Assembly (NCBI GenBank): GCA_025174535.1
Contig: JALBUN010000048.1
Coordinates: 2,046,001-2,110,000 of the forward strand
DNA from: Cantharellus purpuraceus
Taxonomy: Eukaryota > Basidiomycota > Agaricomycetes > Cantharellales > Hydnaceae
Length of the DNA stretch: 64,000 nt
Reading direction: 5' to 3'
A program made the translations under genes and the position numbers. A model generated the notes under the pieces. That model worked only from the letters and a program-made list of their open reading frames with translations, was not told where the DNA came from and ran no database searches. Below are positions 44,881-64,000 of this stretch, one piece after another. Numbering within the stretch: position 1 is the first letter of the stretch; the number at the start of each line of letters is the position of its first letter.

Positions 44881-46203
44881 TGTTTTGGAACCCGCAAAAT
44901 TATGGTGTTAGGGCAAACTCTAAATCACCACAATTCCGTGAATGAACAGCTGAGAAGAATATCAAACCCTGCTGCAGCACAACTCCAGAAACGATCTAAC
45001 GTTTGTACTTTGGTTACAATCCTTTGTATTGGTCAATGCAGACTATACGCAGAAAAGTAATACATTTCTTAGCAGCAAGAAATGAATAAGACTTCCAGAG
45101 TCTAGAGTTCACGGACGCTTAGGGGTCCAGATATTCCAAAAAGAGGGGAATGCACTTAGAGGCTAAAGGAAGTAGGTGGATGAATCCAACCGTCCAACCA
45201 GTGGCACTCAGAACTTAAACAAGAGCACTAATGGCAGGACTATCGACAGACAATCTCACCCTGTAGATTCGTAGTCACGTGAGGCAGATACTACACTCAC
45301 GCCCAAAGCAGGAATATCACTACTTCAAGTGCAATCAAGTACAGTTACACAACTGTAAAAGATCCTTGAACTGGTAATCAACAGTTACTGAGATAGATGA
45401 TGACACTGTATGTCACTCTAGTCACACTGGTGTGCAGAAGATGGGTAGGATATGTTTAATATGTTACTATTTCAGAGGCAGAATGGCCTCCTTATATATT
45501 GTATTTACAGGGGCTGAGCAATGCTTCTGGAATATTCTACCTATTAATAGATGGAAACTACTGGAAGGTTGTGGAAGGTGGAAGAAAGGGGTAGAATATT
45601 CCAAGTCAATCACAGGTTCTGATCACTGAAATAACACTGATCAGGAGCTGAATAATGGTTCTGGAAAGTTCTATCTAATAATAGAAGGAAACAGCTAGAA
45701 TGTTATGGAAAGGGATAGAATATTCCAAGGCAATCACCTGATCTGATCCCTGAACTAGGCACTGATCAGGAAAAAAGAAGGGTGTCCACCCTGTTTTCTG
45801 CACTGGTTTGGACAGCCATGGATAGCCACATCTCAGGTGATGATCTCCACAGAAAATAGTGCCCTGAGAGGCTGTGGTTGTCAAGTTAGAGAATATTTAT
45901 TGATCAGAGACATCTGAGCTTGAATTCAGGCGGAATGCCTGGTCCAAAGGTGGATAGCCGGCTGTGGGAAGGTTTGTGGGCGCCTATGGGTCCACAACTG
46001 TAGCACAGCAGAAATAAATGATTCTGGGCCGAGTTCTGCATGGAATATTCCAGAAAAAATATGAAAAATTAGAGAATATTTGAATAAGTCCATTCCAGGT
46101 ACAAGCATCAAATATATGCTGATATTTAGGAATGGAAAAGCAAAGTATAGCACATTGGTGCTGCATAAATGGAATTTGATAGGGAAAAGGTGGTTCCCAT
46201 ACA
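44881..46203 (-). repeat. Solo LTR-A, reverse orientation
   Basis: 1,323 bp, TGTTTTGGAACC...GGTTCCCATACA, with terminal TG/CA. It is flanked by a perfect 5-bp target duplication CCTTC (44876-44880 and 46204-46208). It is the reverse complement of 47475-48797 with almost no difference; one codon change (Ala/Thr) is visible in a shared open frame. No coding capacity. Confidence 0.9.
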
Positions 46204-46614
46204 CCTTCTCCCGGTTATGCATGCAGGATGAAGCTACCGCATTTTTTTTTTTTTTTTTTTTTTTTTAGCATGTTACTATCATAGGATTGTTCCACATGCG
46301 CAGTAGGATCAGCACTCGGCTTGCTTGTGATTCACATTGATTTTATTTGCTTCTTCATGCACACTAATCCCAGTAAAACACACCTTATCAATGCAAAGCT
46401 CAACTGATGTGAAGTGAGCAGGACTGGAAATCACTTGTGCCTCTCATATAGAATTTTAGTCTTCTAACAGGTATGACAAATCAGGATGGGAGCTAGCCCC
46501 AGGAAACCATCCCTGCAATCCATATCAAGATGGAGTTGCCAAAGGGGCATGGGGCACCAACCACCACTCTGAGTACTCTGTTTTCCCCTTTGACCTTTTC
46601 TCTCTGTTTACTAT

Positions 46615-47180
46615 GACGCTTGTTCGGAATCATGTCAGTATACAATATTCTGATGTATATGAGATATACATCAGAATTTCAATGATACATAAAGCCAGGG
46701 AGTTACAATTTGGATATCTTAAAAGATTTCGGATGTGTGAAATTTTCATAAATATAAACATATATTCTATATTTTAATAAACTTTTAAAGATAAGACATT
46801 TGGTTGAGATGAACATAATTATTTACATGGATATAATAGGAATGTATGTATTAATATAATTGGTATTATATAGGGTATTTAGATATACAAATACCAGGTG
46901 GGGATTAAAGATAGTTCAAATTATGTTATAAGTATTGTATAAGAAAGAATCAATGATATTTGGATGTTCCTTCAAGAGAGTTGCCACCACTAAATCAGGA
47001 AAAAAAGAATTATTTTTGAGAATTATGCCAAAATATCAAAATATGTTTTAATCTAGTATATTGTGTAAAATTTGAGAATCATGTTGAAATATGAAAATAA
47101 GTTTGAATTGAAGTGTATTGTATAAAATTTGAGGAAAATAGGTTGTATATATGTATTTGTTGTATTTCTGAACAAGCGTC
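46615..47180 (-). mobile_element. MITE copy a (566 bp)
   Basis: AT-rich element with inverted ends GACGCTTGTTC / GAACAAGCGTC, flanked by TAT on both sides (46612-46614, 47181-47183). It is the reverse complement of copy b. No open frame of note. Confidence 0.85.
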
Positions 47181-47390
47181 TATGATCAACCTCAAGGTTG
47201 CTGTTGTCATAGGAGTCATCATTCAATCTATCTTGTTTAGTGTCTATCAGGTAAATAGCATTTGGCACCAAGCCATCCATGCCTTGTGTACCATTCATGC
47301 CTTGTGTGTTAAATGGTGGGATGCTATTAGGGTTTCAATGGAGTAACTGGAGTTTGGATGCTAGTGATGAAGGGGATGGGACTTTACTGT

Positions 47391-47474: not shown

Positions 47475-48797
47475 TGTATGGGAACCACCTTTTCCCTATC
47501 AAATTCCATTTATGCAGCACCAATGTGCTATACTTTGCTTTTCCATTCCTAAATATCAGCATATATTTGATGCTTGTACCTGGAATGGACTTATTCAAAT
47601 ATTCTCTAATTTTTCATATTTTTTCTGGAATATTCCATGCAGAACTCGGCCCAGAATCATTTATTTCTGCTGTGCTACAGTTGTGGACCCATAGGCGCCC
47701 ACAAACCTTCCCACAGCCGGCTATCCACCTTTGGACCAGGCATTCCGCCTGAATTCAAGCTCAGATGTCTCTGATCAATAAATATTCTCTAACTTGACAA
47801 CCACAGCCTCTCAGGGCACTATTTTCTGTGGAGATCATCACCTGAGATGTGGCTATCCATGGCTGTCCAAACCAGTGCAGAAAACAGGGTGGACACCCTT
47901 CTTTTTTCCTGATCAGTGCCTAGTTCAGGGATCAGATCAGGTGATTGCCTTGGAATATTCTATCCCTTTCCATAACATTCTAGCTGTTTCCTTCTATTAT
48001 TAGATAGAACTTTCCAGAACCATTATTCAGCTCCTGATCAGTGTTATTTCAGTGATCAGAACCTGTGATTGACTTGGAATATTCTACCCCTTTCTTCCAC
48101 CTTCCACAACCTTCCAGTAGTTTCCATCTATTAATAGGTAGAATATTCCAGAAGCATTGCTCAGCTCCTGTAAATACAATATATAAGGAGGTCATTCTGC
48201 CTCTGAAATAGTAACATATTAAACATATCCTACCCATCTTCTGCACACCAGTGTGACTAGAGTGACATACAGTGTCATCATCTATCTCAGTAACTGTTGA
48301 TTACCAGTTCAAGGATCTTTTACAGTTGTGTAACTGTACTTGATTGCACTTGAAGTAGTGATATTCCTGCTTTGGGCGTGAGTGTAGTATCTGCCTCACG
48401 TGACTACGAATCTACAGGGTGAGATTGTCTGTCGATAGTCCTGCCATTAGTGCTCTTGTTTAAGTTCTGAGTGCCACTGGTTGGACGGTTGGATTCATCC
48501 ACCTACTTCCTTTAGCCTCTAAGTGCATTCCCCTCTTTTTGGAATATCTGGACCCCTAAGCGTCCGTGAACTCTAGACTCTGGAAGTCTTATTCATTTCT
48601 TGCTGCTAAGAAATGTATTACTTTTCTGCGTATAGTCTGCATTGACCAATACAAAGGATTGTAACCAAAGTACAAACGTTAGATCGTTTCTGGAGTTGTG
48701 CTGCAGCAGGGTTTGATATTCTTCTCAGCTGTTCATTCACGGAATTGTGGTGATTTAGAGTTTGCCCTAACACCATAATTTTGCGGGTTCCAAAACA
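47475..48797 (+). repeat. LTR-A, forward orientation
   Basis: 1,323 bp, TGTATGGGAACC...GGTTCCAAAACA. The flanks do not match (GCCCC left, ATATC right): the left flank is an LTR-B fragment and the right flank is gypsy pol. It therefore looks like a recombinant LTR and not a simple insertion. Confidence 0.85.
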
Positions 48798-49091
48798 ATA
48801 TCAATGCTTGAACCCGCTACTACGAACGAGATCTCTGGTCACACGCAACCTCCACCTCCCCTGATCATCATTGAAGGAGACAATGAATATGAGATATCTG
48901 AGATCCTGGACTTGAAGATTGACCGTCGATACAAGTGCAAGCTCCAGTACTTAGTCAAATGGACTGGATATGAAGGCACCGACGAAGAGTCCTCATGGAT
49001 CTCCATGTCCAAACTCAATCACGCATCTGAATCCATCTCTGACTTTCACTCTGCTTATCCAGACAAACCTGGCCCTCTTATGAATCCTTAA
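48798..49091 (+). pseudogene. 3' end of Ty3/gypsy pol with chromodomain (element 1)
   Basis: The frame ends at TAA 49089-49091. It contains LEPATTNEISGHTQPPPP, then a chromodomain EYEISEILDLKIDRRYKC, LQYLVKWTGYEGTDEESSWI and a short tail SAYPDKPGPLMNP. Chromodomains at the integrase C-terminus steer chromoviruses to marked chromatin. Everything upstream (gag, protease, RT, integrase core) is missing, replaced by LTR-A at the position equivalent to VFHIS in element 2. Kept residues include the W and Y of the aromatic cage. Confidence 0.82.
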
Positions 49092-49241: not shown

Positions 49242-50996
49242 TTATACATTGCGTTTCCTTTTCCCCTTCCCCTTATCTACCTCAGGCTCCATCTCCGACT
49301 CCTCATCACTCTCTACATCCGACACCCAATCCTTCTCATCTCCCATGTCCAAATCCTCGTCCAAAGGGGCCATGAACTTCTGCAACCGATGTAACTCGGC
49401 CGTCCGCCGACCCTCCAGAACCTCTTTCTGTTTCATCATCCTCACCAAGTCTACTAGCAACCCCTCCATCCGCCGAAGGTGCTCTGACTGCAGGTTAACC
49501 AGCCGGATAAGCTGGCCCACGGTACTATTGGGCACAGAGATGCGCCCCGTACCTGCACCGGTCATTGCCCCTTCCGATCCGACACCACTACCCCCAGCTG
49601 CCACAGCACCCATCTCCGTCCACCTCTTTTTGGTCAGACGACCTTCCGATTCTTTCTCTGCCCCTCCTTGTACCACTAGTCGGGGCTTGAACTTTCCATC
49701 GATCCTACACCCTCCTTTCCGACCCCGACAACGATCGCAGGACCGAAGTTGGCAAGTTGGGCCAGTGGGCCACACGCACTCCACACCCACATCACGACAT
49801 AAGTCGCAAGTTACACCGGGTCTGCCAAATGGCTCCGTTGGAGCCAGAGCCTTGGGTGGTCTGCCCCTTCTCGCTGCGGCCTCCAAGCGTTCCCTCTCCT
49901 CCTCCTTGTCCTGCTGTCCTGCCGCCGCCTTCTCCATCTTGTGCTTGTGAAGCTGGATTGCCGACCTTATGACACGCAGCTCCTTCTTACGGGTCGCCAA
50001 CACGCGACTCTCCACCTTGCACCATATGACCCTCCAATCCGCCTCCCGCTTCTCCATATCAGTACTCGGGTATGCCTTCAATGAAAAAACCGTGATGTCG
50101 AGATTCTTCTTAGTGGTAGCGGCATAGAGCTCTGCTCTTTTGCGAGCCTCAGCTACCCAAGCCATCTCCTTGTAAGAATTCGAAGTGGGATCTGGCTCTG
50201 CATCTGTCCCAACATCCACACCTGCCTCAGGCTCTGCATTTGCATTGAGCTCCATATTGGCATCAGGATCTGTCTCCACCTCCACCCTCTCCGTCTCCGC
50301 CGCATCATCTTCCTCAGCTGCCCCCAACTCAAATAAGGGCCGTGCCCGTGGACGTAACAGCGAGTCCTCTGCAGTGACAGTCTTCGAACGAGTCACCTCC
50401 ATCCGTGTTATGGAGATGATGGCAACTTCAGGGGTCCCTGGCCGTATCGGCACACTCATACTTCCTGGACTGGTTGCCCCTGCCCCGGTCACCTCCTCCT
50501 CTACCTCCATGGCAGCTTCCAGCTTGTGCACCTGCTCCTCCACTTCCTTCAGTCTCGCAGCCTCCATTGCTGCTGCAAGTTCCTTTACCATGTGGGCCCT
50601 CTCGGCCTTTGCTTCCTCCTCTTTCCTTCTCCGTTCTGTCTTCGCCACCTCTTTCTGCCTCTGCTCTTCCTCCTCCTTCCGTCTCCGTTCCGCATCCTCC
50701 TCCTTCCGTCTCCATTCCACCTCCTCCTCCTTCCATCTCTGTTCCGCCTCCTCCTCCTTCCGTCTCTGTTCTGCCTCCTCCTCCTTCCATCTCCATTCTG
50801 CCTCTTCCTCCTCGTTCCATCTCCGTTCCACCTCCTCCTCCTCCTTCCGTCTCCGTTCCGCTTCCTCCTCCTCCTTCCGTTTCTGTTCCGCTTCCTCCTC
50901 CTCTTTCCGTTTCCACTCCTCCTCCTCTTCCTTCCGTCAGGCCAAGAGCAACTGCTCAAGCTCAGCCATGCTCATGCTTGCCAAAGGGTTTGACAT
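49242..50996 (-). CDS. Antisense accessory gene of the gypsy element: coiled coil, AT-hook-like motif, Zn2Cys6 cluster
   Basis: The frame runs from ATG 50996 to stop at 49242, 584 codons, interrupted only by TGA at codon 20 (50939-50937). Residues 1-19 read MSNPLASMSMAELEQLLLA. About residues 20-150 are Glu/Arg/Lys repeats (EEEAEQRRKEEE type), a long charged coiled coil. An acidic middle contains EMAWVAEARKRAELYAATTK, then RRGRPPKAL (AT-hook-like, near residue 375). A cysteine cluster (about 394-430) is spaced C-x2-C-x6-C-x12-C-x2-C-x6-C, the exact Zn2Cys6 pattern of fungal DNA-binding proteins. A Leu-rich helix (LIRLVNLQSEHLRRMEGLL) and an acidic/basic tail end it. It is convergent with the chromodomain frame (150 bp apart) and lies inside the element, upstream of the 3' LTR. 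A second copy occurs at 55672-57202. Function is unknown; chromatin binding or regulation is inference. Confidence 0.7.
50638..50936. repeat. Coding tandem repeat of the accessory gene
   Basis: Diverged units of about 24-27 bp built on TCCTCCTCCTTCC-x-TCTCC-x-TTC, encoding the E/R/K coiled-coil repeats. The unit number differs between the two gypsy copies. Confidence 0.8.
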
Positions 50997-51037: not shown

Positions 51038-51138
51038 TCTCCAGACCCCCAGTATAACTCCGACCATGCCCAATCGTCTCACCTATTCAATCCACGGACA
51101 TGAGGCCTCAGGGGCTCGGCCTTAAATGGAGAGATACT

Positions 51139-51663
51139 GTTATGACTATATTCATTAACGTCCAGATCCCCGTCCAATCCACTCAGATCCCCGCGCATAT
51201 GAAATCTATACTCCATTTGGAAACCGCCGTCTCCATCTACCTGTCCGATTGTCACCGCCGATTCCACCCATCTGTCTCCGGTTCCAATTGATGCATCAGC
51301 ATCACCATAGGAACCCAGACATCTGTCCCTGTCAGACTCGGACATGCTCATGTAAGGCTGTCAGCCTCGGAGACCCATCACCAGAGTAATTATTATTAGA
51401 TTTCAAATATGTATTTAAGTTGCCTGACTGGGGACTTCATTCCCCAGTTTGAATATTGAATCACGCCTAGTTCCTAAGTCCGATCCTAACTCTCTAAGTC
51501 GTACTCTGTCTCCAAAATCTTGGACACCAGTATCAGTGAGGGTGCAGCACATAAGCTGAAGCCAAGTCTGTTCTGACCCCCACGACATACTCCGCTTCGA
51601 CCCAACCTCGGACCTCGATCTCTGACCCAATCTCCAACCCCCAATCAGACCTAGTGCGTAACA
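51139..51663 (+). repeat. LTR-B copy 1 (3' LTR of element 1)
   Basis: 525 bp, TGTTATGACTATATTC...CTAGTGCGTAACA. A purine-rich tract AAATGGAGAGATAC lies directly before it and TTGGTGGAGTTGAC, a possible primer-binding site, follows it. Confidence 0.8.
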
Positions 51664-51855: not shown

Positions 51856-52546
51856 TGTCAGGGTTCATATGACTCATTTTCTATTTTTAGTACCTTTCTT
51901 ATTGCCCCTATCAGCATAGCCTGTCAGGGTGCACTCTCCTATCTCTCTCCTATCTTGTTACACACTAGGTCCGATTGGGGGTTGGAGATTGGGTCAGAGG
52001 TTGGGTCAGAGGTTGGGTTGGAGTTGGAGAGGGAGTCAGGGTATGTTGTGAGGGTTGGAACGGACTTGGCTTCAGCTTATGTGCTGCACCCTCACTAATA
52101 CCAGTGTCCAAGATTTCGGAGACAGAGTACAACTTAGATAGTTAGGATTGGACTTAGGAACTAGGTGTGATTTGATATTTGAACTGGGGGTGAAGTCCCC
52201 AGTTGGACAGCTTAAATACATATTTGAAATCTAATAACAATTACTCCAGTGATGGGTCTCCAAGGCCAACGGCCTTACGTGAGTATGTCTGAGTCCGATG
52301 GGGATGGATGTCCAGGTTCCTATGGTGATGCTGATGCATCAATCAGAACCGGAGATGGATGGGCGAGATTCGGCAGTGACAATTGGACAGATAGATGGGG
52401 ATGTGATGGTTTCCAAATGGAGTATAGATTTCATATGCATGGATCTGAGTGGATCAGATGGGGATCTGGGCGTTAATGAATATAGTCATAACATATCTTT
52501 CCCCTATTGTTCCCCTATCTTGGTTCCCCTATTTCTTGCATCATCC
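51856..52546 (+). repeat. LTR-C fragment, split by LTR-B copy 2
   Basis: TGTCAGGGTTCATATGACTC at 51856 and TTCCCCTATCTTGGTTCCCC (52519-52540 area) match 58179-58340 in order. A solo LTR-B sits between the halves. Confidence 0.65.
51956..52493 (-). repeat. Solo LTR-B copy 2
   Basis: 538 bp, TGTTACACACTAGG...GTCATAACA, flanked by the 5-bp target duplication TATCT (51951-51955, 52494-52498). Confidence 0.85.
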
Positions 52547-54015: not shown

Positions 54016-54166
54016 TAAGTTACTAGTGTGTACTGCCTTTGCAGAGCATTAGAATCTTGAACTTGTGTGAAGCAGTTGCTAGACTACTTCACACCTCGCT
54101 GTTACCTGCTTCAGAGTGTCACTGGTTGGACAGTCGGATTCATCCACTACTTCCTCTAGCCTCTAA

Positions 54167-54732
54167 GACGCTTGTTCAGAAATACAACAAATACGTATAT
54201 ACAACCTATTTTCCTCAAATTTTATACAATACACTTCAATTCAAACTTATTTTCATATTTCAACATGATTCTCAAATTTTACACAATATACTAGATTAAA
54301 ACATATTGTGATATTTTGGCATAATTCTCAAAAATAATTCTTTTTTTCCTGATTTAGTGGTGGCAACTCTCTTGAGGGAACATCCAAATATCATTGATTG
54401 TTTCTTATACAATACTTGTAACATAATTTGAACTATCTTTAATCCCCACCTGGTATTTGTATATCTAAATACCCTATATAATACCAATTATATTAATACA
54501 TACATTCCTATTATATCCATGTAAATGATTATGTTCATCTCAACCAAATATCTTATCTTTTAAAGTTTATTAAAATATAGAATATATGTTTATATTTATG
54601 AAAATTTCACACATCCGAAATCTTTTAAGATATCCAAATTGTAACTCCCTGGCTTTATGTATCATTGAAATCCTGATGTATATCTCCTATACATCAGAAT
54701 ATTGTATACTGACATGATTCCGAACAAGCGTC
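54167..54732 (+). mobile_element. MITE copy b (566 bp)
   Basis: GACGCTTGTTCAG...CGAACAAGCGTC, flanked by TAA (54164-54166, 54733-54735). The empty site CCTCTAAGTGCATT is intact at about 48518. Same length as copy a, opposite orientation. Confidence 0.88.
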
Positions 54733-55630
54733 TAAGTGCATTCCCCTCTTTTTGGAATATCTGGACCCCTAAGCATCCATGAACTCTAGACTCTGGAAGT
54801 CTTATTCATTCCCTGCTGCTAAGAAACATATTACCTTCCTGCATATCGTCTGCATTGACCATTACAACAGATTGTAACCAAAGTACAAACATTAAATCGT
54901 TTCTGGAGTTGTGCTGCAGTAGGATTTGATATTCTTCTCAGCTGTTCATTCATGGAATTGTGGTGATTTAGAGTTTGCCCTAACACCATAATTTTGCGGG
55001 TTCCAAAACACTAGGTCCAAATCAGGGTTGGAGGTTGGGTTGGAGGTTGGGTTGGAGGTTGGAGAGGGAGTCAGGGTATGTTGTGGGGGTTGGAACAGAC
55101 TTGGCTTCAGCTTATGTGCTGCACCCTCACTAATACCAGTGTCTGAGATTTTAGAGACAGAGTATGACTTAGATAGTTAGGATTGGACTTAGGAACTAGG
55201 CGTGATTTGATATTTGAACTGGGGATGAAGTCCCCAGTTGGACAGCTTAAATACATATTTGAATTCTAATAATAATTACTCTGGTGATGGGTCTCCAAGG
55301 CTGATGGCCTTACGTGAGTATGTCCAAGTCTGATGGGGACAGATGTCTGGGTTCCTATGGTGATGCTGATGCATCAATCAGAACCGGAGATGGATGGGCG
55401 AGATTCGGCAGTGACAATCGGACAGATAGATGGGGATGTGATGGTTTCCAAATGGAGTATAGATTTCATATGCATGGGGATCTGAGTGGATCGGACAGGG
55501 ATCTGGGTGTTAATGAATATAGTCATAACAGTATCTCTCCATTTAAGGCCAAGCCCCTGAGGCCTCATGTCCATGGATTGAATAGATGAGACAGTTGGGC
55601 ACAGTCGGAGTTATACTGGGGGTCTGGAGA

Positions 55631-55641
55631 CATATAAAAGG
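55631..55641 (+). promoter_or_regulatory. TATA box of accessory gene copy 2
   Basis: CATATAAAAGG, 31-41 nt before ATG 55672, as in element 1. Confidence 0.55.
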
Positions 55642-55671: not shown

Positions 55672-57202
55672 ATGTCAAATCCTTTGGCAAACATGAGTGT
55701 GGCCGAGCTTGAGCAGTTGCTCTTGGCCTGATGGAAGGAAGAGGAAGAGGAGCAGAGATGGAAAGAGGAGGAGGCAGAACAGAGATGGAAGGAGGAGGAG
55801 GAGGCAGAACGGAGATGGAAGGAGGAGGAGGAGGCAGAACAGAGATGGAAGGAGGAGGAGGAGGCAGAATGGAGATGGAAGGAGGAGGAGGAGGCAGAAT
55901 GGACATGGAAGGAGGAGGAGGAGGCAGAACGGACATGGAAGGAGGAGGAGGAGGCAGAATGGAGACAGAAGGAGGAGGCAGAGACAGAATGGAGAAGGAA
56001 GGAGGAAGAAGCAAAAGCCAAGTGAGCCTGCAGGGTCAAGGAACTTGTGGCCACGATGGAGGCCATGAGACTGAAGGAAGTGGAAGAGCAGACACATGAG
56101 CTAGAAGCCACCATGGAGGTAGAGGAGGAGGTGACTGGGGCAGGGGCGACCAGTCACTCAGAGTCCAAGTGTGCCAATACAGGCAGGGACCCCCAAGGTC
56201 GCCATCATCTTGATTATGCGGATGGAATTAACCCGTCTGACAGCTGTCCCTATGGTGGACTCACAATTACATCTGTGGTCATGGCTGTTATTTGTGGTGG
56301 GTGTGGCTGAGGAAGATGATGCCGTGGAGGTGGAGAGGGCGGGTGGATCCTGATGCCAAAATGGAGCTCGACGCAAATGCAGAGCCTGAGGCAGGTGTGG
56401 ATGTTGGGACAGATATGGAGCCAGATCCAACCTCAAATTGCTATGAGGAGATGGCTTTGGGTAGCTCCAGTCAAAGCTTGCAAAAGGGTGGAGCTCTATG
56501 CTGCTGCCACCAAGAAGAACCTTGAGGTCACAGTTTTTTCATTGAAGGCACACCCGAGTGCTGATATGGAGAAGCAGGAGGCGGACCAGAGGGTCATATG
56601 GTGCAAAGCGGAGAATTGCATGTTGGCGACCCATAAGAAGGAGCTGTGTGTCACTAGGTCAGCAATCCAGCTTCACAAGTGCAAGATGGAGAAGGTGGCG
56701 GTGGAACAGCAGGACAAGGAGGAGGAGAGGGGCACTTAGAGGCCACATCGAGAAGGAGTGGACCACCCAAGGCTCTGGCTCCGATGGAGCCATTTGGGGG
56801 GCCTGGTGTAATTTGCAACTTGTGTTGTGACATGGGCGTGGAGTGTGTGTGGCCTACTGGCCCAACTTGCCACCTTTGGTCCTGCAATCATTGTCGGGGT
56901 CAGAAAGGAGGGTGTAGGATCAATGGCAAGTTCAATCCCTGGAGTCAGAGCACCTCTGGCAGATGGAGGGGTTGTTAGTGGACTTGGTGAAGACGATGAA
57001 ATGGAAGGAGGTTCTGGAGGGTTGGCAGACTGCTGAGTTGCATCGGCTGCAGAAGTTCATGGCCCCTTTGGACGAGGATTCAGATATGGGGGATGAGAAA
57101 GATTGGGTGTCAGATGTAGAGAGTGATGATGAGTCAGAGACAGAGCCTGAGGTGGACAAGGGGAAGGGAAAAAGGAAACACAATGTAAAACATAAAAAAT
57201 GA
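55672..57202 (+). pseudogene. Accessory gene copy 2, broken
   Basis: Starts ATG 55672 with MSNPLANMSVAELEQLLLA and has TGA at 55729-55731, the same codon 20 as in copy 1, followed by WKEEEEE. The coiled-coil repeat block (55730-56000) is followed by more stops (for example TGA after KAK near 56024) and frameshifts. The cysteine cluster survives near 56811-56925 (CNLC, GVECVWPTGPTC, CNHCRGQKGGC), and the end MAPLDEDSDMGDEKDWVSDV is open to the stop at 57200-57202. Layout relative to the chromodomain frame and LTR equals copy 1. Confidence 0.78.
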
Positions 57203-57286: not shown

Positions 57287-57641
57287 TCATAAGAGGGCCA
57301 GGGTGTCTGGATAAGTGGAGTGAAAATCAGAGACAGATTCAGATGCATGATTGAGTTCGGATGTGGAGATCCATGAGGACTCTTCATCAGTGCCTTCATA
57401 TTCAGTCCATTTGACTAGGTACTGGAGCTTGCACTTGTATCGACGATCAATCTTTGAGTCCAGAATCTCAGATATCTCATATTCGTTATCTTCTTTGATG
57501 ATGATCAGAGGAGGTGGAGGTTGCGTGCGACCGGAGATCTTGTTTGTAGTAGCAGGTCCGAGCATTGATATATGGAAGACCAGGTGAACTGCTTGGAAGT
57601 GGTCAGGGAGGTGGAGGGTGAAGGACCTGCTGCCTGCACAA
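57287..57641 (-). pseudogene. 3' end of Ty3/gypsy pol with chromodomain (element 2)
   Basis: Minus-strand frame with SRSFTLHLPDHFQAVHLVF, HISMLGPATTNK, EYEISEILDSKIDRRYKC, QYLVKWTEYEGTDEESSWI and a tail ending at 57287. G in KWTGY is E here. The upstream pol is cut by LTR-E at 57642. Confidence 0.8.
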
Positions 57642-59090
57642 TGACGAGCCAGGATGCATTGAGGACGTATATCGAACCACTCTGACAGTCCAACTCCGCC
57701 AGCGTCTTTTTGTATCAAACTTTTAAATAGTGCTGCAACTCCCTCTCCACCTCAGTCTCTAATTCTAGCCATCGGTCATCACTCATGTTTCATCGCCATC
57801 GATCATTATCAGCCTCCTATTCACACCGATCCTTTCATCATCATTCACATGGCTTCCAATCCTATTCCCTCTCCAACATCTCTTCTAATAATACATCACA
57901 CTGGTCTCTGGACACAGAGGACTATCAAAAATATGCTGAGCTCCATGGGCATGTTAAGCCACCTCCACGCATCAAAATACTTCCAAAACTCTTTCAATGT
58001 CCAAGGTCCCCACCATGTCTCTCTTATGCGATTGGTGATCCCATATTCTTTCATGATTCTGTTGAACCATATACATTCCTTGGCATTTTGCCTCTATATC
58101 ATAACACAGATAGAAGAGTTGAATGTGAGGTAGAGTTTCACTGACCTATCCTCCCGCTTCAATCTGACTCAGGTTAAATGTCAGGGTTCAAATGAGTCAT
58201 ATTCTATTTTTAGTATTTTCTCTTGATGCCCCTATCAGCACAGCCTGTCAGGGAGTGTCTCTCCTATTTCATTGCCCCCATCACTTCCTATCCTTCCTCC
58301 CTATTATTCCCCTATCTTGGTTCCCCTATCTGTCTCCATCATTTAGTATAAAGACTTGCCTTGGTGCAGTGTGATCCCCTCAGCTTGATCTCTGAGGATA
58401 TCCACTGTACCAGGTAAGTCCCATGTATTTATCAGAAACAGCTGTATAGACTGAGGATATCCGCTGTACCAGCTGGCATTATCTCTTATCGGCTCTCGTT
58501 CTATTGAGTATCTTGTTGTTGTGGCCTCGTCATCAGCATCGCCTTCACAGGCTTCCAATTCTATTCCTCTCTCCAACATCTCTTCTAATAATATGTCACA
58601 CTGGTCTCTGGACACAGAGGATTATCAAAAATACACTGAGCTCCACGGGCATGTTAAGCCACCTCCATGTGTCAAAATACTTCCAAAACTCTTTCAACAT
58701 CCAAGATCCCCACCATGTCTCTCTTATGTGATTGGCGATCCTATATTCTTTCACGATTCCATTGAACCATATACATTCCTCGGTATTTTGCCTCTATATT
58801 GTAACACAGATAGAAGAGTCAAACATGAGGTAGAGTTTCAGTTGCCATCGCCGACCTATCCTCCCACTTCAATCCGACTCAGGTTACATCATGTCAGGCA
58901 AAGGGACCAAATACCCTTGGAACAGGATACCATATGGAGATGGATCACTAAGACAATAAGGAGTATTTGTTGTGGATGCTGACTGAAGTCCTCATGTGAT
59001 CAGGGTCAATTTATCTTCAGAGACACACCGTCTGTTTGTTAGGACTGTTGCACATAGGCTTACAGGATCTATTCCATAAGTGAACCGACA
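57642..59090 (+). repeat. LTR-E copy 1 (rearranged)
   Basis: Starts TGACGAGCCAGGATG and ends CCATAAGTGAACCGACA. It contains the LTR-borne reading frame twice (57.79-58.14 and 58.52-58.98 kb) with an LTR-C-like segment from 58179 between them. Left flank is element 2 pol and right flank is element 3 gag, with no target duplication, so it is a recombinant. Confidence 0.65.
58540..58982 (+). CDS. LTR-E-borne open reading frame, copy 2
   Basis: Open frame of about 145 codons matching 61430-61864 (NSIPLSNISSNN, HWSLDTEDYQKY, PPPCVKILPKLFQ, YAIGDPIFFH-like, CCGC end). There is no ATG at the homologous start: GCTTCCAATTC follows a possible 3' splice site (CTTCACAG). An earlier partial copy at 57785-58144 is frameshifted and cut short. 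Confidence 0.35.
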
Positions 59091-60660
59091 TCGGACCAAG
59101 GTCCGAGAACCAGATACCTTTGATGGATCTGACTCCTGCAAACTCCAGCCTTTCCATATGCAATGTACCCTTGATTTTTGTGACCGTCCTGATGCGTTCT
59201 CCAATAATAGTGCTAAAGTTACTTATGCTCCATCCTATTTGAAGGGAACTGCACTCGACTGGTTTGAACCCACCCTAACCCCCAATTCCAAAGCCTCTTG
59301 GCTAGACGACTACTCTGAGTTCATGTCTGAGTTGAAGACCAACTTCAGACCTCATGACCCAGAGGCTGAAGCCAAGGCTGAACTCGAGAATCTCCAAATG
59401 TGTGATAACCAAAGGTGTTGAAAGAATTTCGCCTTGCTGGGGGTGTGTTGAGAATAGATTTTGAATAGGGACAGAGGGAGTGATGGGAACTGGGTGTATG
59501 CATAATTGAATTGAAGATATACTTGAGTAGTATCTTCCTACGAAGTTTGATGAAATTTGGTGTGATCTTCATCTAGATATTGACAATTTGAGCAGGGATC
59601 AGGAGCAGATGACTCGAACAAGAGTAAATGCTTAATAGAAAATCAACCAGTGGAGCTTAGGATTCACAAACTGGGACTCAAATAATGTTGCAATACTCTG
59701 GAAGAGTATGCAAAAGATTGTAGAAATACGCGTTTGTTCTGGAGTTATTCCAGAAACAAATAGTTCAGATACAGTCAACAAAAACAAGTGAGAGAAAATT
59801 CTCTAGTCCATTGCATATCTAGCTAGGTGTGTTTTATACAAGATATGCATGCTAATAACTCATGATAAAAGTTCTGTGTCATGTGAATAAAGGGAAAGTG
59901 ATTTATGATAAAAACAAAATGGGGGGGTGATGTCAAATAGGGAAAAATGATGAAATAAATCAAAAGAAAGATTAGGGTGATTGTTCAGACCATTGTGGAC
60001 CTTACAGGGGCTCCTCCTTTCCCCTCTCAGTCATTTCCCCTCATCTCCTTATCCCCTCCTAAGCTCCTGAGCCTCCTATATGCTCCTACCCCTCCTATCC
60101 CCTCTGTTCCCCCCTCTCCTTTTTCTCCCTAGAAGTCCGGTCTTCCAAATAACAAAAGGATCACTAAGTATCTAGTTGAATTCAATCAACTAGCTGCTCG
60201 TGTCCAATGAGGAAATGCTGCACTCTGACACCAGTTATACAATGGCCTCCCATCCTGAATTAAGGACGAGGTCACCAGAGTAGACAAACCCATCACCCTA
60301 GCCAAACTCAGGACTCTAGTCCAGTCCATTGATGCTCAGTATTGGGAATGACACTCTGAGGTAGCTCATGAGACCTCCTCAGGCAAGAATCAAGACAAGT
60401 CCAATGACAAGGGCAAGTCCACCTCATCCTCCAACACCCAGGGCAGTGACAACAAGAAGCAGCCCAACTCTGGTAAATCTGGTAACACCTGATCCAACCC
60501 CCTACAGCCTCTACCTCCAGAACTCTGATCTTCTGTGGACAAATAGGTCACATTGCCAAGGATTGTCCAAAGACCACCTCTGCAGCTATGAAAGCTCATG
60601 CTGCTACAATGGATGACAAGTCCAACAAGAGCTCTGAAGCCAAGGCTATGGAGCCAAAAT
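59091..60660 (+). pseudogene. Ty3/gypsy gag (element 3), broken by LTR-D
   Basis: TKVREPDTFDGSDSCKLQPF, AKVTYAPSYLKGTALDWFEP, WLDDYSEFMSELKTNFRPHD and EAEAKAELENLQ belong to the Retrotrans_gag family. The frame stops at the LTR-D insertion (59416), resumes after 60154 with ITKYLVEFNQLAARVQ, then meets TGA codons where Trp is expected. A zinc knuckle remnant at 60525-60572 (FCGQIGHIAKDC) has lost its first Cys. The 5' part of gag and the primer site are missing. Confidence 0.82.
59416..60154 (+). repeat. Solo LTR-D in gag
   Basis: 739 bp, TGTTGAAAGAATTTC...TCCAAATAACA, flanked by the target duplication AAAGG (59411-59415, 60155-60159). Removing it and one AAAGG rejoins gag in frame (DNQR|ITKY). 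CT-rich in its last 150 bp. Confidence 0.9.
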
Positions 60661-60679
60661 AATAATAAGCAACCCTCTG

Positions 60680-61222
60680 GCTCTGGCACCAGACAATGGT
60701 TGCGTTGAACTCATTGGTGCCTTCATGGAGCTATGTCTCAACGCATCCACTCTTTCAGATCCTAATTCCTTGACACTCCGACTCACCTCCAATCTTATCC
60801 CCTTAACTCCAATCCCAACCCTAGTGGACTCTGGTTCCACTCATTGTTTCCTCAACACTTCATTTGTCTCTGGACATCACCTCCAGACTGAAGATGTTAC
60901 TCCAATGCCATTATGGCTTTTTGACAGATCCTCTACCTCTGTTATCAAATCCACAATCAAATTGCCACTCCATTTTCCTATGGGAGAAACCCACTCTGTT
61001 ACTTTTTATGTAACTCTGTTGGATATTATTTGTTTGGCAGTTCTGGGACACAACTGGCTCACCTGCTACAATCCATTGATTGACTGGGTATTGGGCAGTA
61101 TCTCATTCTGAACTCCAATAGAGACTAAATCCTTGGTGCCACCTGAGTTGGTAGCATCAGCTCCACTCAACTCCATAACTCCATCTCTGTTTGTTGCTCC
61201 AAAAATAGCTTTGGTCAACGCG
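60680..61222 (+). pseudogene. Ty3/gypsy aspartic protease region (element 3)
   Basis: Open from ATG 60725 to 61111: LTSNLIPLTPIPTLVDSGST with the D-S-G active site (Asp codon at 60827), then FLNTSFVSGHHL and LAVLGHNWLTCYNPLIDW (the second conserved block). The frame then stops and, 110 bp later, is cut by LTR-E. Confidence 0.8.
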
Positions 61223-62642
61223 GTGAAGAGCCAGGACGGATCAAGGACGTATATCAAACCACTCTGACAGTCCAACTCCGCCAGCATCTTTTCATATCAA
61301 CTTTTAAATAGCACCGCAACTCCCTCTCCACCTCAGTCTCTAATTCTAGCCATCGATCGTCAATCGTGTTTCATCGCCATCAATCATTATCAGCCTCCTA
61401 TTCACACCGATCCTTTCATCATCATTCACATGGCTTCCAATTCTATTCCCCTCTCCAACATCTCTTCTAATAATACGTCACACTGGTCTCTGGACACAGA
61501 GGATTATCAAAAATATGCCAAGCTCCACAGGCATGTTAAGCCACCTCCACGTGTCAAAATACTTCCAAAACTCTTTCAATGTCCAAGATCCCCACCCTGT
61601 CTCTCTTATGCCATTGGTGATCCCATATTCTTTCACAATTCCGTTGAACCATATACATTCCTTGGTATTTCGCCTCTATATCGTAACACGGATAGAAGAG
61701 TCAAACATGAGGTAGAGTTTCAGTTGCCATCGCCGACCTATCCTCCCACTTCAATCCGACTCAGGTTACATCATGTCAGGCAAAGGGACCAAATACCCTT
61801 GGAACAGGATACCATATGGAGATGGATCACTAAGACAATAAGGAGTATTTGTTGTGGATGCTGACTGAAGTCCTCATGTGACTCAGGGTCAATTTACCTT
61901 CGGAGCCGTAGGAAAGATGGTATTGGTGGATGTTTCTATTGTTCTTTTATATGACTTACCCCTGTTTCATCTTTTAATTCATTCATACACAACTTACTCA
62001 TCCTTTTTGGTTCTTTTATTACTCATCACCCCCTATTCTTACAAAGATTACCCCTATCTGTCACTTCATTTCTCCATGATTTCCCCATTAGTAGTTCAAC
62101 TTCACATGCTTTGTCAGCTGGCTTGATCAGCATTTCTTGCATCATATTGCATCATTTGCTCCTCATATTGTGTTGTTGTGCCCTGGGGATTTGTATATAA
62201 AAGGGCGCTAGTTTTTGCCTTTGGAATGAATCAACAAGTTTTCAGCCAACACTCTAAAGTCAAAGTCCACGCTCTAAGTCCACGCTCTACGCTCTACATC
62301 ACAATCCATCATCTCTACACTGAGGTAAAGCACCTTGGTTGAATGATCAGATTTCCCTCCACCACCAAGAGGTCGCTTCTCCTGAAACCAGCTTTCGCAT
62401 GCCTCCCAACCGGGCTATCCATTGTCATCCAGTCACAGAGCACGATCAGCCATCTGGACCAACCTTTTGCTTCCATCCTCATCCAACCACAGAGCACTAT
62501 CTCACTTTCCTGTTACCCAGTGCTGCTCCTACCCCTTGACCTGATTGATCTTTGGAGTGCTGAACAACTGCGTTACACACTGTCTGTTTGTTAGGACCGT
62601 TGCGCACAGGCTTATAGGATCTATTCCATAAGCAAACCGACA
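61223..62642 (+). repeat. LTR-E copy 2, inserted in pol
   Basis: 1,420 bp, TGAAGAGCCAGGACG...CATAAGCAAACCGACA, lying between the protease and RT parts of element 3. The flanks (CGCGG / GTGGC) do not form a clean duplication. It contains an open frame at 61430-61864 and a TTTTAAATAG box about 120 nt before that frame. Confidence 0.7.
61430..61864 (+). CDS. LTR-E-borne ORF of unknown function, 144 residues
   Basis: ATG 61430 to stop 61864. Sequence blocks: MASNSIPLSNISSNNTSHWS, LDTEDYQKYAKLHRHVKPPP, RVKILPKLFQCPRSPPCLS, GDPIFFHNSVEPYTFLGI, RLHHVRQRDQIPLEQDTIWR and the end ICCGC. No domain recognised. Three related copies in the window (57.8, 58.5, 61.4 kb) show that it belongs to the element. 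Many differences between copies keep residues similar, but the sample is too small to prove selection. Confidence 0.45.
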   Translation: MASNSIPLSNISSNNTSHWSLDTEDYQKYAKLHRHVKPPPRVKILPKLFQCPRSPPCLSYAIGDPIFFHNSVEPYTFLGISPLYRNTDRRVKHEVEFQLPSPTYPPTSIRLRLHHVRQRDQIPLEQDTIWRWITKTIRSICCGC

Positions 62643-64000
62643 GTGGCAGCCTTCGCCTGTGACTCTTCCCAAGCTGATGCACAAGCATTCAAGTTGTTCA
62701 TCTCCTCAACAGTTCCAAAGAACTCCAAGGACCCTCTGGTCAACATGAAGAATGTTCCAACTGAATATCATAAATTCATGGATGTTTTTAGCAAAACCCA
62801 TGCCGACACACTCCCCACTCATAAGCTGTATGATTTGAAGATCAAAATGGAAGATGGAACATCTCCTCCTTTCAGTCTGATCTACTCCTTGTCCCAGAGC
62901 AAACTCCAGGCTCTTTGAGAATTCATCAATGAGCATCTATCTTATGGTTTCATCCAGCCAACCTGATCTCTGGGTGGCGCTCCAGTCCTTTTCATTTGAA
63001 AAAAAGACAGATCCCTCAGACTTTGCATCAATTTCAGAGGTCTCAATAAAATCACCAAAAAAGATTGTTATCCAGTATCTCCAATCTCCTTGACAGTCCT
63101 AGAAAGGCTTGATTCTTCACCAAAATCAATCTCCAGCATGCTTACCATCTGGTCCAGATTCATGAAGGTGATGAATGGAAGACTGTGTTTCGCACTTGCT
63201 ATGGTGCATTTGAGTGGTGCATTATGCCCTTTGGACTTACCAATGCTCCAGTAGCATTCCAGCGTCTTATGAACAACATTTTCTCTGACCTCCTGGATAT
63301 GTGTCCTCATGTACTTGGACGATATCCTGATATACTCTGACAACTCCAAAGAACACAGCAACCATGTCCATAAAGTCCTTCTCCGACTCCAGAAGCATAA
63401 GCTGTATGCTTGAGCCAACAAATGTTCTTTCCATGAGAGCACGGTCAAGTACCTTGGATATATATTGTCTCCAAATGGACTTACTATGGACTCCAGCAAA
63501 GTCCAGGTAATACAAGATTGGCCAGAACCCCCGCAAAGTCAAAGATGTGCAATCCTTCCTAGGATTTGCCAATTTCTATAGGTGTTTCATATTCAACTAC
63601 TCCGATCTCACAGTTCCACTGACTCATTTAACTCATAAAGGAACTCCATGGGAGTTCTTGGACTCCTGTTGGACATCCTTTGAAACATGAAAGAGAGCTT
63701 TCATCACAGCTCTGGTCTTATCACAATGGAATCCCAGATCCCCAATCATTGTAGAAGCCAACGCCTCCAACTACGCACTAGCAGCCATTCTATCAACCAT
63801 CTCTCCAACAGACAATGAGGTCCATCTGATAGCTTTCCACTCCTGGACTTTCACTCCAGCAGAACTCAACTATGATGTCCATGATAAAGAACTACTCACA
63901 ATCTTTAAAGCTTTCAAGTCCTGGCAACATTATATCGAAGGATCTCCAACTCCAGTCAATGTCATTACAGACCACAAGAACCTCAAATACCTTTCAACTA
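62643..64000 (+). pseudogene. Ty3/gypsy reverse transcriptase and RNase H (element 3), runs off window
   Basis: After LTR-E, pol continues: AAFACDSSQADAQAFKLF, VPTEYHKFMDVFSKTHADTL, PFSLIYSLSQSKLQAL; stops; [40 protein letters not shown]; a frameshift just before the YLDD catalytic box (codons at 63312-63323); [14 protein letters not shown], then YLGYILSPNGLT. RNase H begins near 63640 with SPIIVEANASNYALAAILS and VHDKELLTIFKAFKSWQHYI and reaches the window end at ITDHKNLKYLST. Several stops and shifts make it inactive. Confidence 0.85.

What the first reader, a model, noticed from the sequence alone, without database searches (positions are those of the whole stretch)
49242..50996. Antisense Zn2Cys6/AT-hook/coiled-coil gene carried inside a Ty3/gypsy element
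Ty3/gypsy elements normally code only on the sense strand. Here a 584-codon frame lies antisense between the chromodomain end of pol and the 3' LTR. Both gypsy copies in the window have it in the same place and orientation. It has its own TATA box, a Zn2Cys6 cluster with exact spacing, an AT-hook-like RGRPP motif and a charged coiled coil. The encoded protein could bind element or host DNA and act as a regulator, anti-silencing factor or targeting partner for the chromodomain. Layout and motifs are seen; the function is inference.
Basis: partly seen in the sequence, partly recalled or inferred. Interest (0 to 1): 0.87.

Follow-up and report, generated by a model that had tools for sequence, protein, structure and literature searches.

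The report
Antisense gene inside a fungal retrotransposon
A common jumping element of a fungus carries, on the strand opposite to its own genes, an extra protein gene that natural selection has kept, probably a nuclear regulator of the element, of a kind so far described in plants and some retroviruses.

Summary
The window copy of the frame (49242-50996, minus) has TGA at codon 20 and the second copy is broken, but both are decayed members of a real gene family. The own genome holds at least 109 copies; 56 of 56 chromodomain/gene pairs show the same antisense layout; TSD-flanked elements carry it. dN/dS is 0.33 against 0.44-0.99 in other frames, and N/S lies below a context-preserving null. 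Relatives at 34-40% identity keep six cysteines at exact spacing. The RGRPP 'AT hook' is not conserved; Pfam Zn2Cys6 stays below its cut-off.

Beyond the finding, a sister gypsy family beside the window has a different antisense gene in the same place (dN/dS 0.18-0.27) with a 58-59 nt antisense-strand intron inside a similar cluster: strong sequence evidence for antisense transcription and splicing.

Best reading: an accessory nuclear regulator with its own promoter, in layout like plant Grande/Retand antisense genes and HTLV HBZ. I found no fungal report. The exact function is inferred.

The parts
49242..50996 (-). Antisense gene, copy A: start ATG at 50994-50996, TGA at codon 20 (50937-50939), then 564 open codons to the stop at 49242
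   Evidence: seven other genomic copies run open from this ATG for more than 540 codons
51027..51037 (-). TATA box (CATATAAAAGG) of the antisense gene; TATA starts 39 nt before the ATG
   Evidence: 26-mer around it found 383 times in the own genome at up to 2 mismatches, reversed control 0
50600..50936 (-). Charged coiled coil of 10-residue (30-nt) repeats; repeat number differs between copies (approximate borders)
49854..49868 (-). RGRPP, the proposed AT hook; not conserved (RGGPP in 21 of 30 copies)
49707..49808 (-). Six-cysteine cluster C-x2-C-x6-C-x12-C-x2-C-x6-C
   Evidence: intact in 29 of 30 copies; six Cys invariant in 14 of 14 aligned sequences, 7 of them distant relatives
49374..49523 (-). 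Conserved C-terminal helix region (TVGQLIRL..QSEHL..)
48795..49091 (+). Chromodomain end of gypsy pol, copy A (pol is cut off at about 48797)
51118..51137 (+). Presumed polypurine tract next to the 3' LTR (AAATGGAGAGATAC)
   Evidence: sequence read; role inferred
51138..51663 (+). 3' LTR of copy A, TGTTATGACT...GTGCGTAACA
   Evidence: paired LTRs, some with TSDs, in genomic copies
51956..52493 (-). Further LTR of the same family, opposite orientation, 84% identical
55009..55530 (-). 3' LTR of copy B
55631..55641 (+). TATA box of the antisense gene, copy B
55672..57169 (+). Antisense gene, copy B: TGA at codon 20 and further stops and frame changes; six-Cys cluster still readable from 56814
57304..57571 (-). 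Chromodomain of copy B
58455..64000 (+). Pieces of a sister gypsy family (approximate, broken, mixed with other repeats); its own antisense gene lies just right of the window, at contig C48 about 2111.8-2112.8 kb (L053)

Best explanation
The frame is a decayed copy of a real accessory gene that belongs to a Ty3/gypsy chromovirus. The gene lies antisense between chromodomain and 3' LTR, has its own TATA promoter just inside the 3' LTR, and makes a protein with a charged coiled coil, a helical hairpin, a six-cysteine (probably zinc) cluster and a C-terminal helix. Shown by sequence: location, promoter conservation, coding constraint, conserved cysteines, and antisense splice sites in a sister family. 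Inferred: the protein multimerises through its helices, enters the nucleus and binds element DNA or chromatin through the zinc cluster, regulating the element's own transcription or silencing, as antisense accessory proteins do in HTLV and as proposed for plant Grande/Retand.
For: At least 109 copies in the own genome, 124 places with those that only one search lists. 56 of 56 chromodomain/gene pairs lie in the same antisense arrangement, 55 of them with gaps of 126-243 nt; 28 of 30 loci have the chromodomain and 28 of 30 the LTR at the expected side. Two-LTR elements with 5-bp TSDs carry it: 4 of 6 checked. The element has gag, CCHC, protease, RT (below its cut-off on a cut piece), RNase H, integrase, SH3_Tf2-1 and chromo domains. 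dN/dS 0.33 against 0.44-0.99 in the five other frames; sites with transversions by codon position 9/8/38; N/S 0.93-1.23 against null means 1.58-1.86 with trinucleotide context kept; the same direction in a segment mostly not used to choose the copies, below every one of 200 shuffles for 6 of 7 references. The constraint is similar to that on the chromodomain itself. Relatives at 34-40% identity keep all six Cys in the 7 aligned. In the sister family exon 2 has dN/dS 0.18-0.27, and the antisense intron's acceptor pattern is found at 34 sites and donor plus acceptor at 9 sites, controls 0.
Against: No transcript, protein, localisation or binding was seen. No Pfam domain reaches its cut-off. The cysteine region is modelled with low confidence and no PDB fold match is significant. 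Of 23 copies with a found start, 16, the window copy among them, have a premature stop. One chromodomain copy (L052) lacks the gene behind its chromodomain. The 30 loci were picked by similarity to this protein, which favours low N/S; answers part of this, and there one of 7 references (L004) is not below all shuffles. One other frame of the same DNA also has a lowish dN/dS of 0.44.
Confidence: 0.62

Rival explanations
1. The protein is an anti-silencing factor: it binds element copies and removes or blocks CpG methylation or heterochromatin, in the way recalled for VANC proteins of plant VANDAL elements.
For: The copies bear heavy CpG decay: 39453 transitions to 3329 transversions in pairwise comparison of 30 copies, 22812 of the transitions at a CpG in one of the pair, so methylation or a like process acts on this family and an antidote would pay. 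Element-specific promoter and family-specific protein.
Against: No enzymatic domain found and no methylation data. The same facts fit a plain transcription regulator.
Confidence: 0.2
2. The protein is a negative, copy-number-limiting factor (restriction of its own element, or a brake on sense transcription), compare Ty1 self-restriction (recalled).
For: The antisense promoter faces the sense genomic RNA; antisense expression would by itself interfere with sense transcription (inference from layout).
Against: Selection on the protein sequence shows that more than the act of antisense transcription matters; no direction of effect was tested.
Confidence: 0.12
3. The region is a captured host transcription-factor gene carried as a passenger without use to the element.
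For: Six-Cys spacing like fungal Zn2Cys6 factors and an intron in the sister family suggest an origin as a host-type gene.
Against: Constraint across many copies and lineages and a fixed place in two gypsy families. Searches show no divergent host homologue, but 15 of the 94 places are not's list and of these only C17:303271 was read (L047); two more lie within 3.5 kb of a listed chromodomain.
Confidence: 0.04
4. The open frame is a by-product of base composition or of a 30-bp GA-rich minisatellite, with no protein made.
For: All frames are fairly open over the GA-rich repeat, including 293 and 227 codons on the plus strand; the window copy has TGA at codon 20.
Against: Over 371 gap-free codons outside the repeat the other five frames hold 5.3 to 19.1 stops per copy on average against 0.4 in this frame; dN/dS, cysteine and relative evidence as above.
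Confidence: 0.02

Closest known systems
Plant Retand/Grande/RIRE2 Ty3-gypsy antisense genes (TRP28 domain, PF04195)
   Same: Antisense frame between pol and 3' LTR in most copies of a family, probably DNA-binding; the Grande gene product is reported nuclear and made from its own promoter (PMC11963269: abstract and passages; Grande title seen in its reference list; that paper is not held).
   Different: Retand elements are non-chromovirus; here it is a chromodomain element in a fungus, the protein has no TRP28 match but a six-Cys cluster, the region between pol and LTR is about 2 kb rather than 2.9-6.6 kb, and a sister gene has an antisense intron.
HTLV-1 HBZ and related antisense proteins of deltaretroviruses
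   Same: Antisense gene at the 3' end of a retroelement, coiled-coil nuclear regulator, spliced antisense RNA (recalled; HBZ nuclear localisation in a passage of PMC11963269).
   Different: HBZ is a bZIP protein transcribed from the 3' LTR (recalled); here the TATA box lies inside the element and the protein has a cysteine cluster. No homology claimed.
Fungal Zn2Cys6 (Gal4-type) transcription factors, Pfam PF00172
   Same: Exact C-x2-C-x6-C-x12-C-x2-C-x6-C spacing; the second half (CDRCRGRKGGC) fits the first 14 profile positions of Zn_clus.
   Different: Below cut-off (14 against 21 bits). The halves look swapped against the recalled Gal4 order: the K/R-rich CxxC half comes second and the CxxC...GxxCxW half first. 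The cluster lies far inside the protein.
Fungal Ty3/gypsy chromoviruses (Tf2-1-like)
   Same: Domain set including SH3_Tf2-1 and chromodomain, 5-bp TSDs in 4 of 6.
   Different: Antisense gene between chromodomain and 3' LTR; the word 'antisense' does not occur in the main text held of the survey 'LTR Retrotransposons in Fungi' (PMC3248453, word search and passages).

Membership tests
Ty3/gypsy chromovirus (the carrier) | gag, protease, RT, RNase H, integrase, then chromodomain | tested here: met
   (pieces of L033 and L041; RVT_1 below its cut-off on a cut piece, RT_RNaseH well above)
Ty3/gypsy chromovirus (the carrier) | Two LTRs with TG...CA ends and short TSD | tested here: met
   TSD of 5 bp in 4 of 6 two-LTR elements; L040 and L032 do not match
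Accessory antisense gene of an LTR retrotransposon | Antisense to pol, fixed place, present in most copies | tested here: met
   56 of 56 pairs; 28 of 30 loci; of 6 chromodomain-selected loci 4 directly and a fifth behind about 1.6 kb of other sequence. The other 88 chromodomain places without a listed gene were not read
Accessory antisense gene of an LTR retrotransposon | Coding constraint | tested here: met
Accessory antisense gene of an LTR retrotransposon | Antisense transcript from its own promoter | tested here: inconclusive
   TATA conserved; splice sites in the sister family; no RNA data
Retand TRP28 antisense family | TRP28 domain PF04195 | tested here: not met
   not among the Pfam matches
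Zn2Cys6 binuclear cluster family PF00172 | Six-Cys spacing | tested here: met
Zn2Cys6 binuclear cluster family PF00172 | Profile match over the curated cut-off | tested here: not met
   E 0.056, 14 of 21 bits; 1 of 10 members at E 6.6
Zn2Cys6 binuclear cluster family PF00172 | Binds two zinc ions and DNA | not testable with these tools
   model confidence too low
AT-hook proteins | Conserved RGRP core | tested here: not met
   8 of 30 copies, none of the 7 distant relatives aligned

The most novel reading that the evidence does not exclude
Antisense regulatory genes are an old, shared and fast-evolving feature of this clade of fungal chromoviruses. Each family carries its own version around a common six-cysteine cluster whose two halves stand in the reverse order of Gal4-type clusters. 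The antisense intron of the sister family works as a strand licence: the sense genomic RNA cannot splice it and so carries it through retrotransposition, while only nuclear antisense RNA gives the protein, which recognises its own family and controls its expression or silencing.
Probability: 0.3. Interest if true: 0.82.

Novelty: new variant of a known kind. Interest (0 to 1): 0.66.

Why it matters
If right, antisense accessory genes arose or persisted in retroelements of three very different settings (deltaretroviruses, plant Tat/Retand elements, fungal chromoviruses), which suggests that a separately transcribed nuclear regulator at the 3' end is a recurrent solution. A fungus with hundreds of marked copies and a spliceable antisense RNA makes the old question of what these proteins do directly testable by RNA-seq, tagging and reporter assays.

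Tried and rejected
Rejected: a chance open frame; a full 584-codon gene in the window copy; an AT hook; a host single-copy gene (with the gap told under the rival). Not shown: homology of the sister antisense gene with this one. BLAST finds none for the gene itself, relatives of the other lineage give only short hits (best E 0.006), and profile comparison finds only the second cysteine half (23 columns, E 0.007-0.008 but probability 5-6%); the shared C-x2-C-x6-C-x-W ... C-x2-C-x6-C order is a suggestion.

Led nowhere: IMG/VR scan with the protein profile (0 confirmed of 361 stretches); AlphaFold2 of the cysteine region (pLDDT 47) and Foldseek against PDB (0 of 792 at E <= 0.001); PDB sequence search (best E 0.17); ten paper searches, of which searches returned nothing and searches returned 3, 2, 5 and 14 papers. 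Of these I read passages of six (PMC11963269 also its abstract; PMC3248453, PMC10799480, PMC5408684, PMC12810828, PMC5389150); the others I know from the listing only, among them PMC7175516, which mentions antisense transcripts three times. A first, narrower intron pattern matched 2 places only. The host species was not identified; 148 DUF6533 matches fit a basidiomycete by the recalled distribution of that family.

Limits of the counts: one search scored 109 of 920 first-look candidates, so the copy number is a lower bound; selection tests used 30 of these 109 places, the best scoring (29); TSDs were checked in 6 of the 16 long stretches fetched; protein searches scored about 8000 candidates each; the sister family was read at only 3 loci, and of these 2 keep the intron.

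Full report
What is there. The minus-strand frame at 49242-50996 begins MSNPLASMSMAELEQLLLA and then meets TGA at codon 20 (50937-50939); the 564 codons after it are open to the stop at 49242. On its left lies, on the plus strand, the chromodomain end of a gypsy pol (48795-49091, Pfam Chromo E 5.7e-8), on its right the 3' LTR (51138-51663). A second gypsy copy in the opposite direction has the same layout (LTR 55530-55009, antisense start 55672, chromodomain 57571-57304), but its frame is broken in several places and also has TGA at codon 20.

Not a chance frame. The own genome is held: 40.15 Mb in 50 contigs. A six-frame search with the C-terminal 378 residues gives 110 rows, 109 of them separate places, all but the window itself at 79-89% identity (one short second piece at 77%); 109 of 920 first-look candidates were scored, so this is a lower bound. 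A search with the distant relative P0003 adds 15 places. 61 of the 110 rows have no stop inside the match; of the 49 with stops, 42 hold a TGA (counted by hand). Of the 30 best loci, 28 have the chromodomain and 28 the LTR at the expected side. Matching the list of 109 gene places with the 150 listed chromodomain places gives 56 pairs within 1 kb, all 56 in the same antisense arrangement, 55 with gaps of 126-243 nt and one of 795. The other 94 chromodomain places have no listed gene place; both lists are capped. I read the stretch behind the first six of them that were tried: four have the gene, a fifth has it behind about 1.6 kb of other sequence (L049, which overlaps L015), and one (L052) has the LTR directly behind the chromodomain, the gene being absent.

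The carrier. Pieces of copies L033 and L041 match Retrotrans_gag, zf-CCHC, RVP_2, RVT_1 (below its cut-off), RT_RNaseH, integrase, SH3_Tf2-1 and Chromo. Six of the 16 long stretches fetched, chosen because they hold two family LTRs in line, were checked: lengths 7.8-9.3 kb, 5-bp TSDs in four (L033, L041, L043, L034), none in L040 and L032; LTR pairs are 91-97% identical and differ by 176 transitions and 3 transversions in sum. The antisense gene is therefore inside TSD-flanked elements.

Promoter. In 21 of the 22 loci listed the stretch from TATAAAAGG to the start codon is almost unchanged; the exception, L009, has another sequence upstream. A 26-mer around it occurs 383 times in the genome at up to two mismatches, the reversed control never. 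Decay here is mostly at CpG and this stretch has few CpGs, so conservation alone is weak proof of function. In three distant relatives with a readable upstream translation (P0004, P0009, P0010) the residues YK stand exactly 13 codons before the corresponding Met, as in this family, where they are read from TATAAA; I infer a TATA at the same 39-nt distance there, but their DNA was not seen.

Selection. Over 435 pairs of 30 copies the antisense frame has dN/dS 0.33; in the five other frames of the same DNA the ratio is 0.44, 0.71, 0.84, 0.89 and 0.99. Over gap-free columns this frame holds 0.4 stops per copy, the others 5.3-19.1. Sites with transversions fall 9, 8 and 38 on codon positions 1, 2 and 3. 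Because transition and CpG bias can lower dN/dS without selection, I moved every difference to random sites of the same trinucleotide: N/S is 0.93-1.23 observed against 1.58-1.86 expected for six reference copies, below all 100 shuffles each. The copies had been chosen by similarity to the C-terminal part, so I repeated this on an 82-codon segment of which all but about 12 codons lie outside that part: 29 copies, no stops, N/S below every one of 200 shuffles for six of seven references (L022 only just, 1.02 against a minimum of 1.04) and not for L004 (1.20 against a minimum of 1.18, mean 1.45). As yardstick, the chromodomain (25 copies) gives observed/expected 0.51-0.93 over six references and the antisense gene 0.64-0.77 over four. 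Of 23 loci with a found start, seven run from the start through more than 540 codons (one of these, L004, with an altered end, and one, L008, with a lost cysteine), ten stop at codon 20 and six stop later; in seven of the 30 loci the start motif was not found.

The protein. Pfam gives nothing over a cut-off: no match at E <= 1 for the window frame, and only chance-level ones, best E 0.018, for ten members at E <= 10. Searches of 5.8 billion proteins gave 3, then 9, then 19 relatives, all with source 'jgi' and on short contigs, 34-40% identical to this family (one search gives identity to another relative). The alignment of 14 sequences, 7 from this genome and 7 relatives, keeps all six cysteines at the same spacing, a Trp two residues after the third, and I-x-G after the sixth; in 30 genomic copies 29 keep the six. 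RGRPP is in 8 of 30 and RGGPP in 21 of 30 copies. The cysteine region alone matches Zn_clus at E 0.056, 14 bits against a cut-off of 21, the second half of the cluster on the first 14 profile positions; I read this as a Zn2Cys6-like cluster with swapped halves, which is a suggestion. The AlphaFold2 model of the C-terminal 378 residues is confident only in a helical hairpin (residues 60-164), less so in a helix at 286-336, and poor in the cluster (a second model of the cluster alone is poor too); no fold match is significant.

A sister family tells more. The plus-strand gypsy pieces at 58455-64000 belong to another family: RNase H to integrase DNA about 70% identical, chromodomain 63% in L053, 59% in L054, and two pieces at 64 and 44% in L055. 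Just right of the window (L053) its chromodomain is followed by a different antisense gene, and the same is seen at the two other loci read, L054 and L055. Its second exon has 86 rows of matches in the genome, several rows being pieces of one place, and dN/dS 0.18-0.27 between the three loci, with 29-46 transversions per pair. In L053 and L055 the reading ends DEESELDLICDMCIKHEDVCEWAM or its like, then follows a 58-59 nt stretch with GTGAGT or GTAAGT at the start and a pyrimidine run with TAG at the end, then TGRSHLCLACQQNWLKC or its like, in phase 0. If spliced, this gives C-x2-C-x6-C-x10-C-x2-C-x6-C with Trp after the third cysteine. The acceptor pattern is found at 34 places at up to two mismatches (control 0), donor and acceptor together exactly at 9 places (control 0), with an inner sequence that varies. 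L054 has lost the first-half cysteines and the donor by a deletion, and the first exon of L053 is out of frame with its start. Such an intron is meaningful only on the antisense RNA; the sense genomic RNA cannot lose it. I take it as strong, though not experimental, evidence that antisense genes of this clade are transcribed and spliced. That the two antisense genes are homologous is suggested by the cluster order but not shown.

How it most likely works. An RNA starts just inside the 3' LTR, runs antisense and ends before the chromodomain; its protein multimerises through coiled coil and hairpin, and the cysteine cluster, probably with zinc, binds DNA or chromatin of the element. It then regulates sense transcription, silencing or integration-site chromatin. 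The first steps rest on sequence, the last on analogy with plant Grande and Retand and with HTLV HBZ (PMC11963269: abstract and passages). I put 0.62 on a nuclear regulator of the element and, as my own estimate, 0.95 on a true protein-coding accessory gene of whatever function.

Novelty. Antisense genes between pol and 3' LTR are known in plant Ty3/gypsy elements and some retroviruses. I found none reported in fungi: paper searches, and passages of PMC3248453, PMC10799480, PMC12810828 and PMC5389150, all within an open-access library only. New here are the host group, the chromovirus carrier, the protein family and the antisense intron: a new variant of a known kind.

Noticed in passing
44881-46203 and 47475-48797: Inverted repeat with arms of 1323 nt at 100% identity and 1271 nt between them, ending where copy A's pol is cut; 100% identity amid decayed repeats means a recent event, a gene conversion or an assembly artefact.
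   Followed up: no
46610-47181 and 54166-54737: AT-rich 572-nt element, 98% identical in inverted orientation, with ends ACGCTTGTTC..GAACAAGCGTCT; looks like a short inverted-repeat transposon.
   Followed up: no
50937-50939; L001, L002, L003, L006, L009, L013, L014, L018, L019, L023: TGA at codon 20 is shared by 10 of 23 copies with a found start (L001 is the window copy) and by copy B. It may be a CpG hot spot or mark a subfamily that starts translation elsewhere.
   Followed up: partly
30 loci L001-L030; LTR pairs of L032, L033, L034, L040, L041, L043: Differences between copies are almost all transitions (39453 to 3329; LTR pairs 176 to 3), 22812 at a CpG: mutational decay of methylation or RIP type.
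   Followed up: partly
L041 2273-2297: Behind the 5' LTR no plain tRNA-complementary primer site was obvious by eye (GTATATTTGAACTACC); self-priming as recalled for Tf1 would be possible but was not tested.
   Followed up: no
L052 320-900: A copy with chromodomain followed within about 40 nt by the LTR, the antisense gene missing: gene-less derivatives exist.
   Followed up: partly
L020 646-807: A neighbouring copy starts with a variant MSNSLANLSVAELEQLLLFGRPDF and then continues differently; possibly a further subfamily of the antisense gene.
   Followed up: no
50600-50936: The coiled coil is coded by a 30-nt minisatellite whose repeat number differs between copies.
   Followed up: partly
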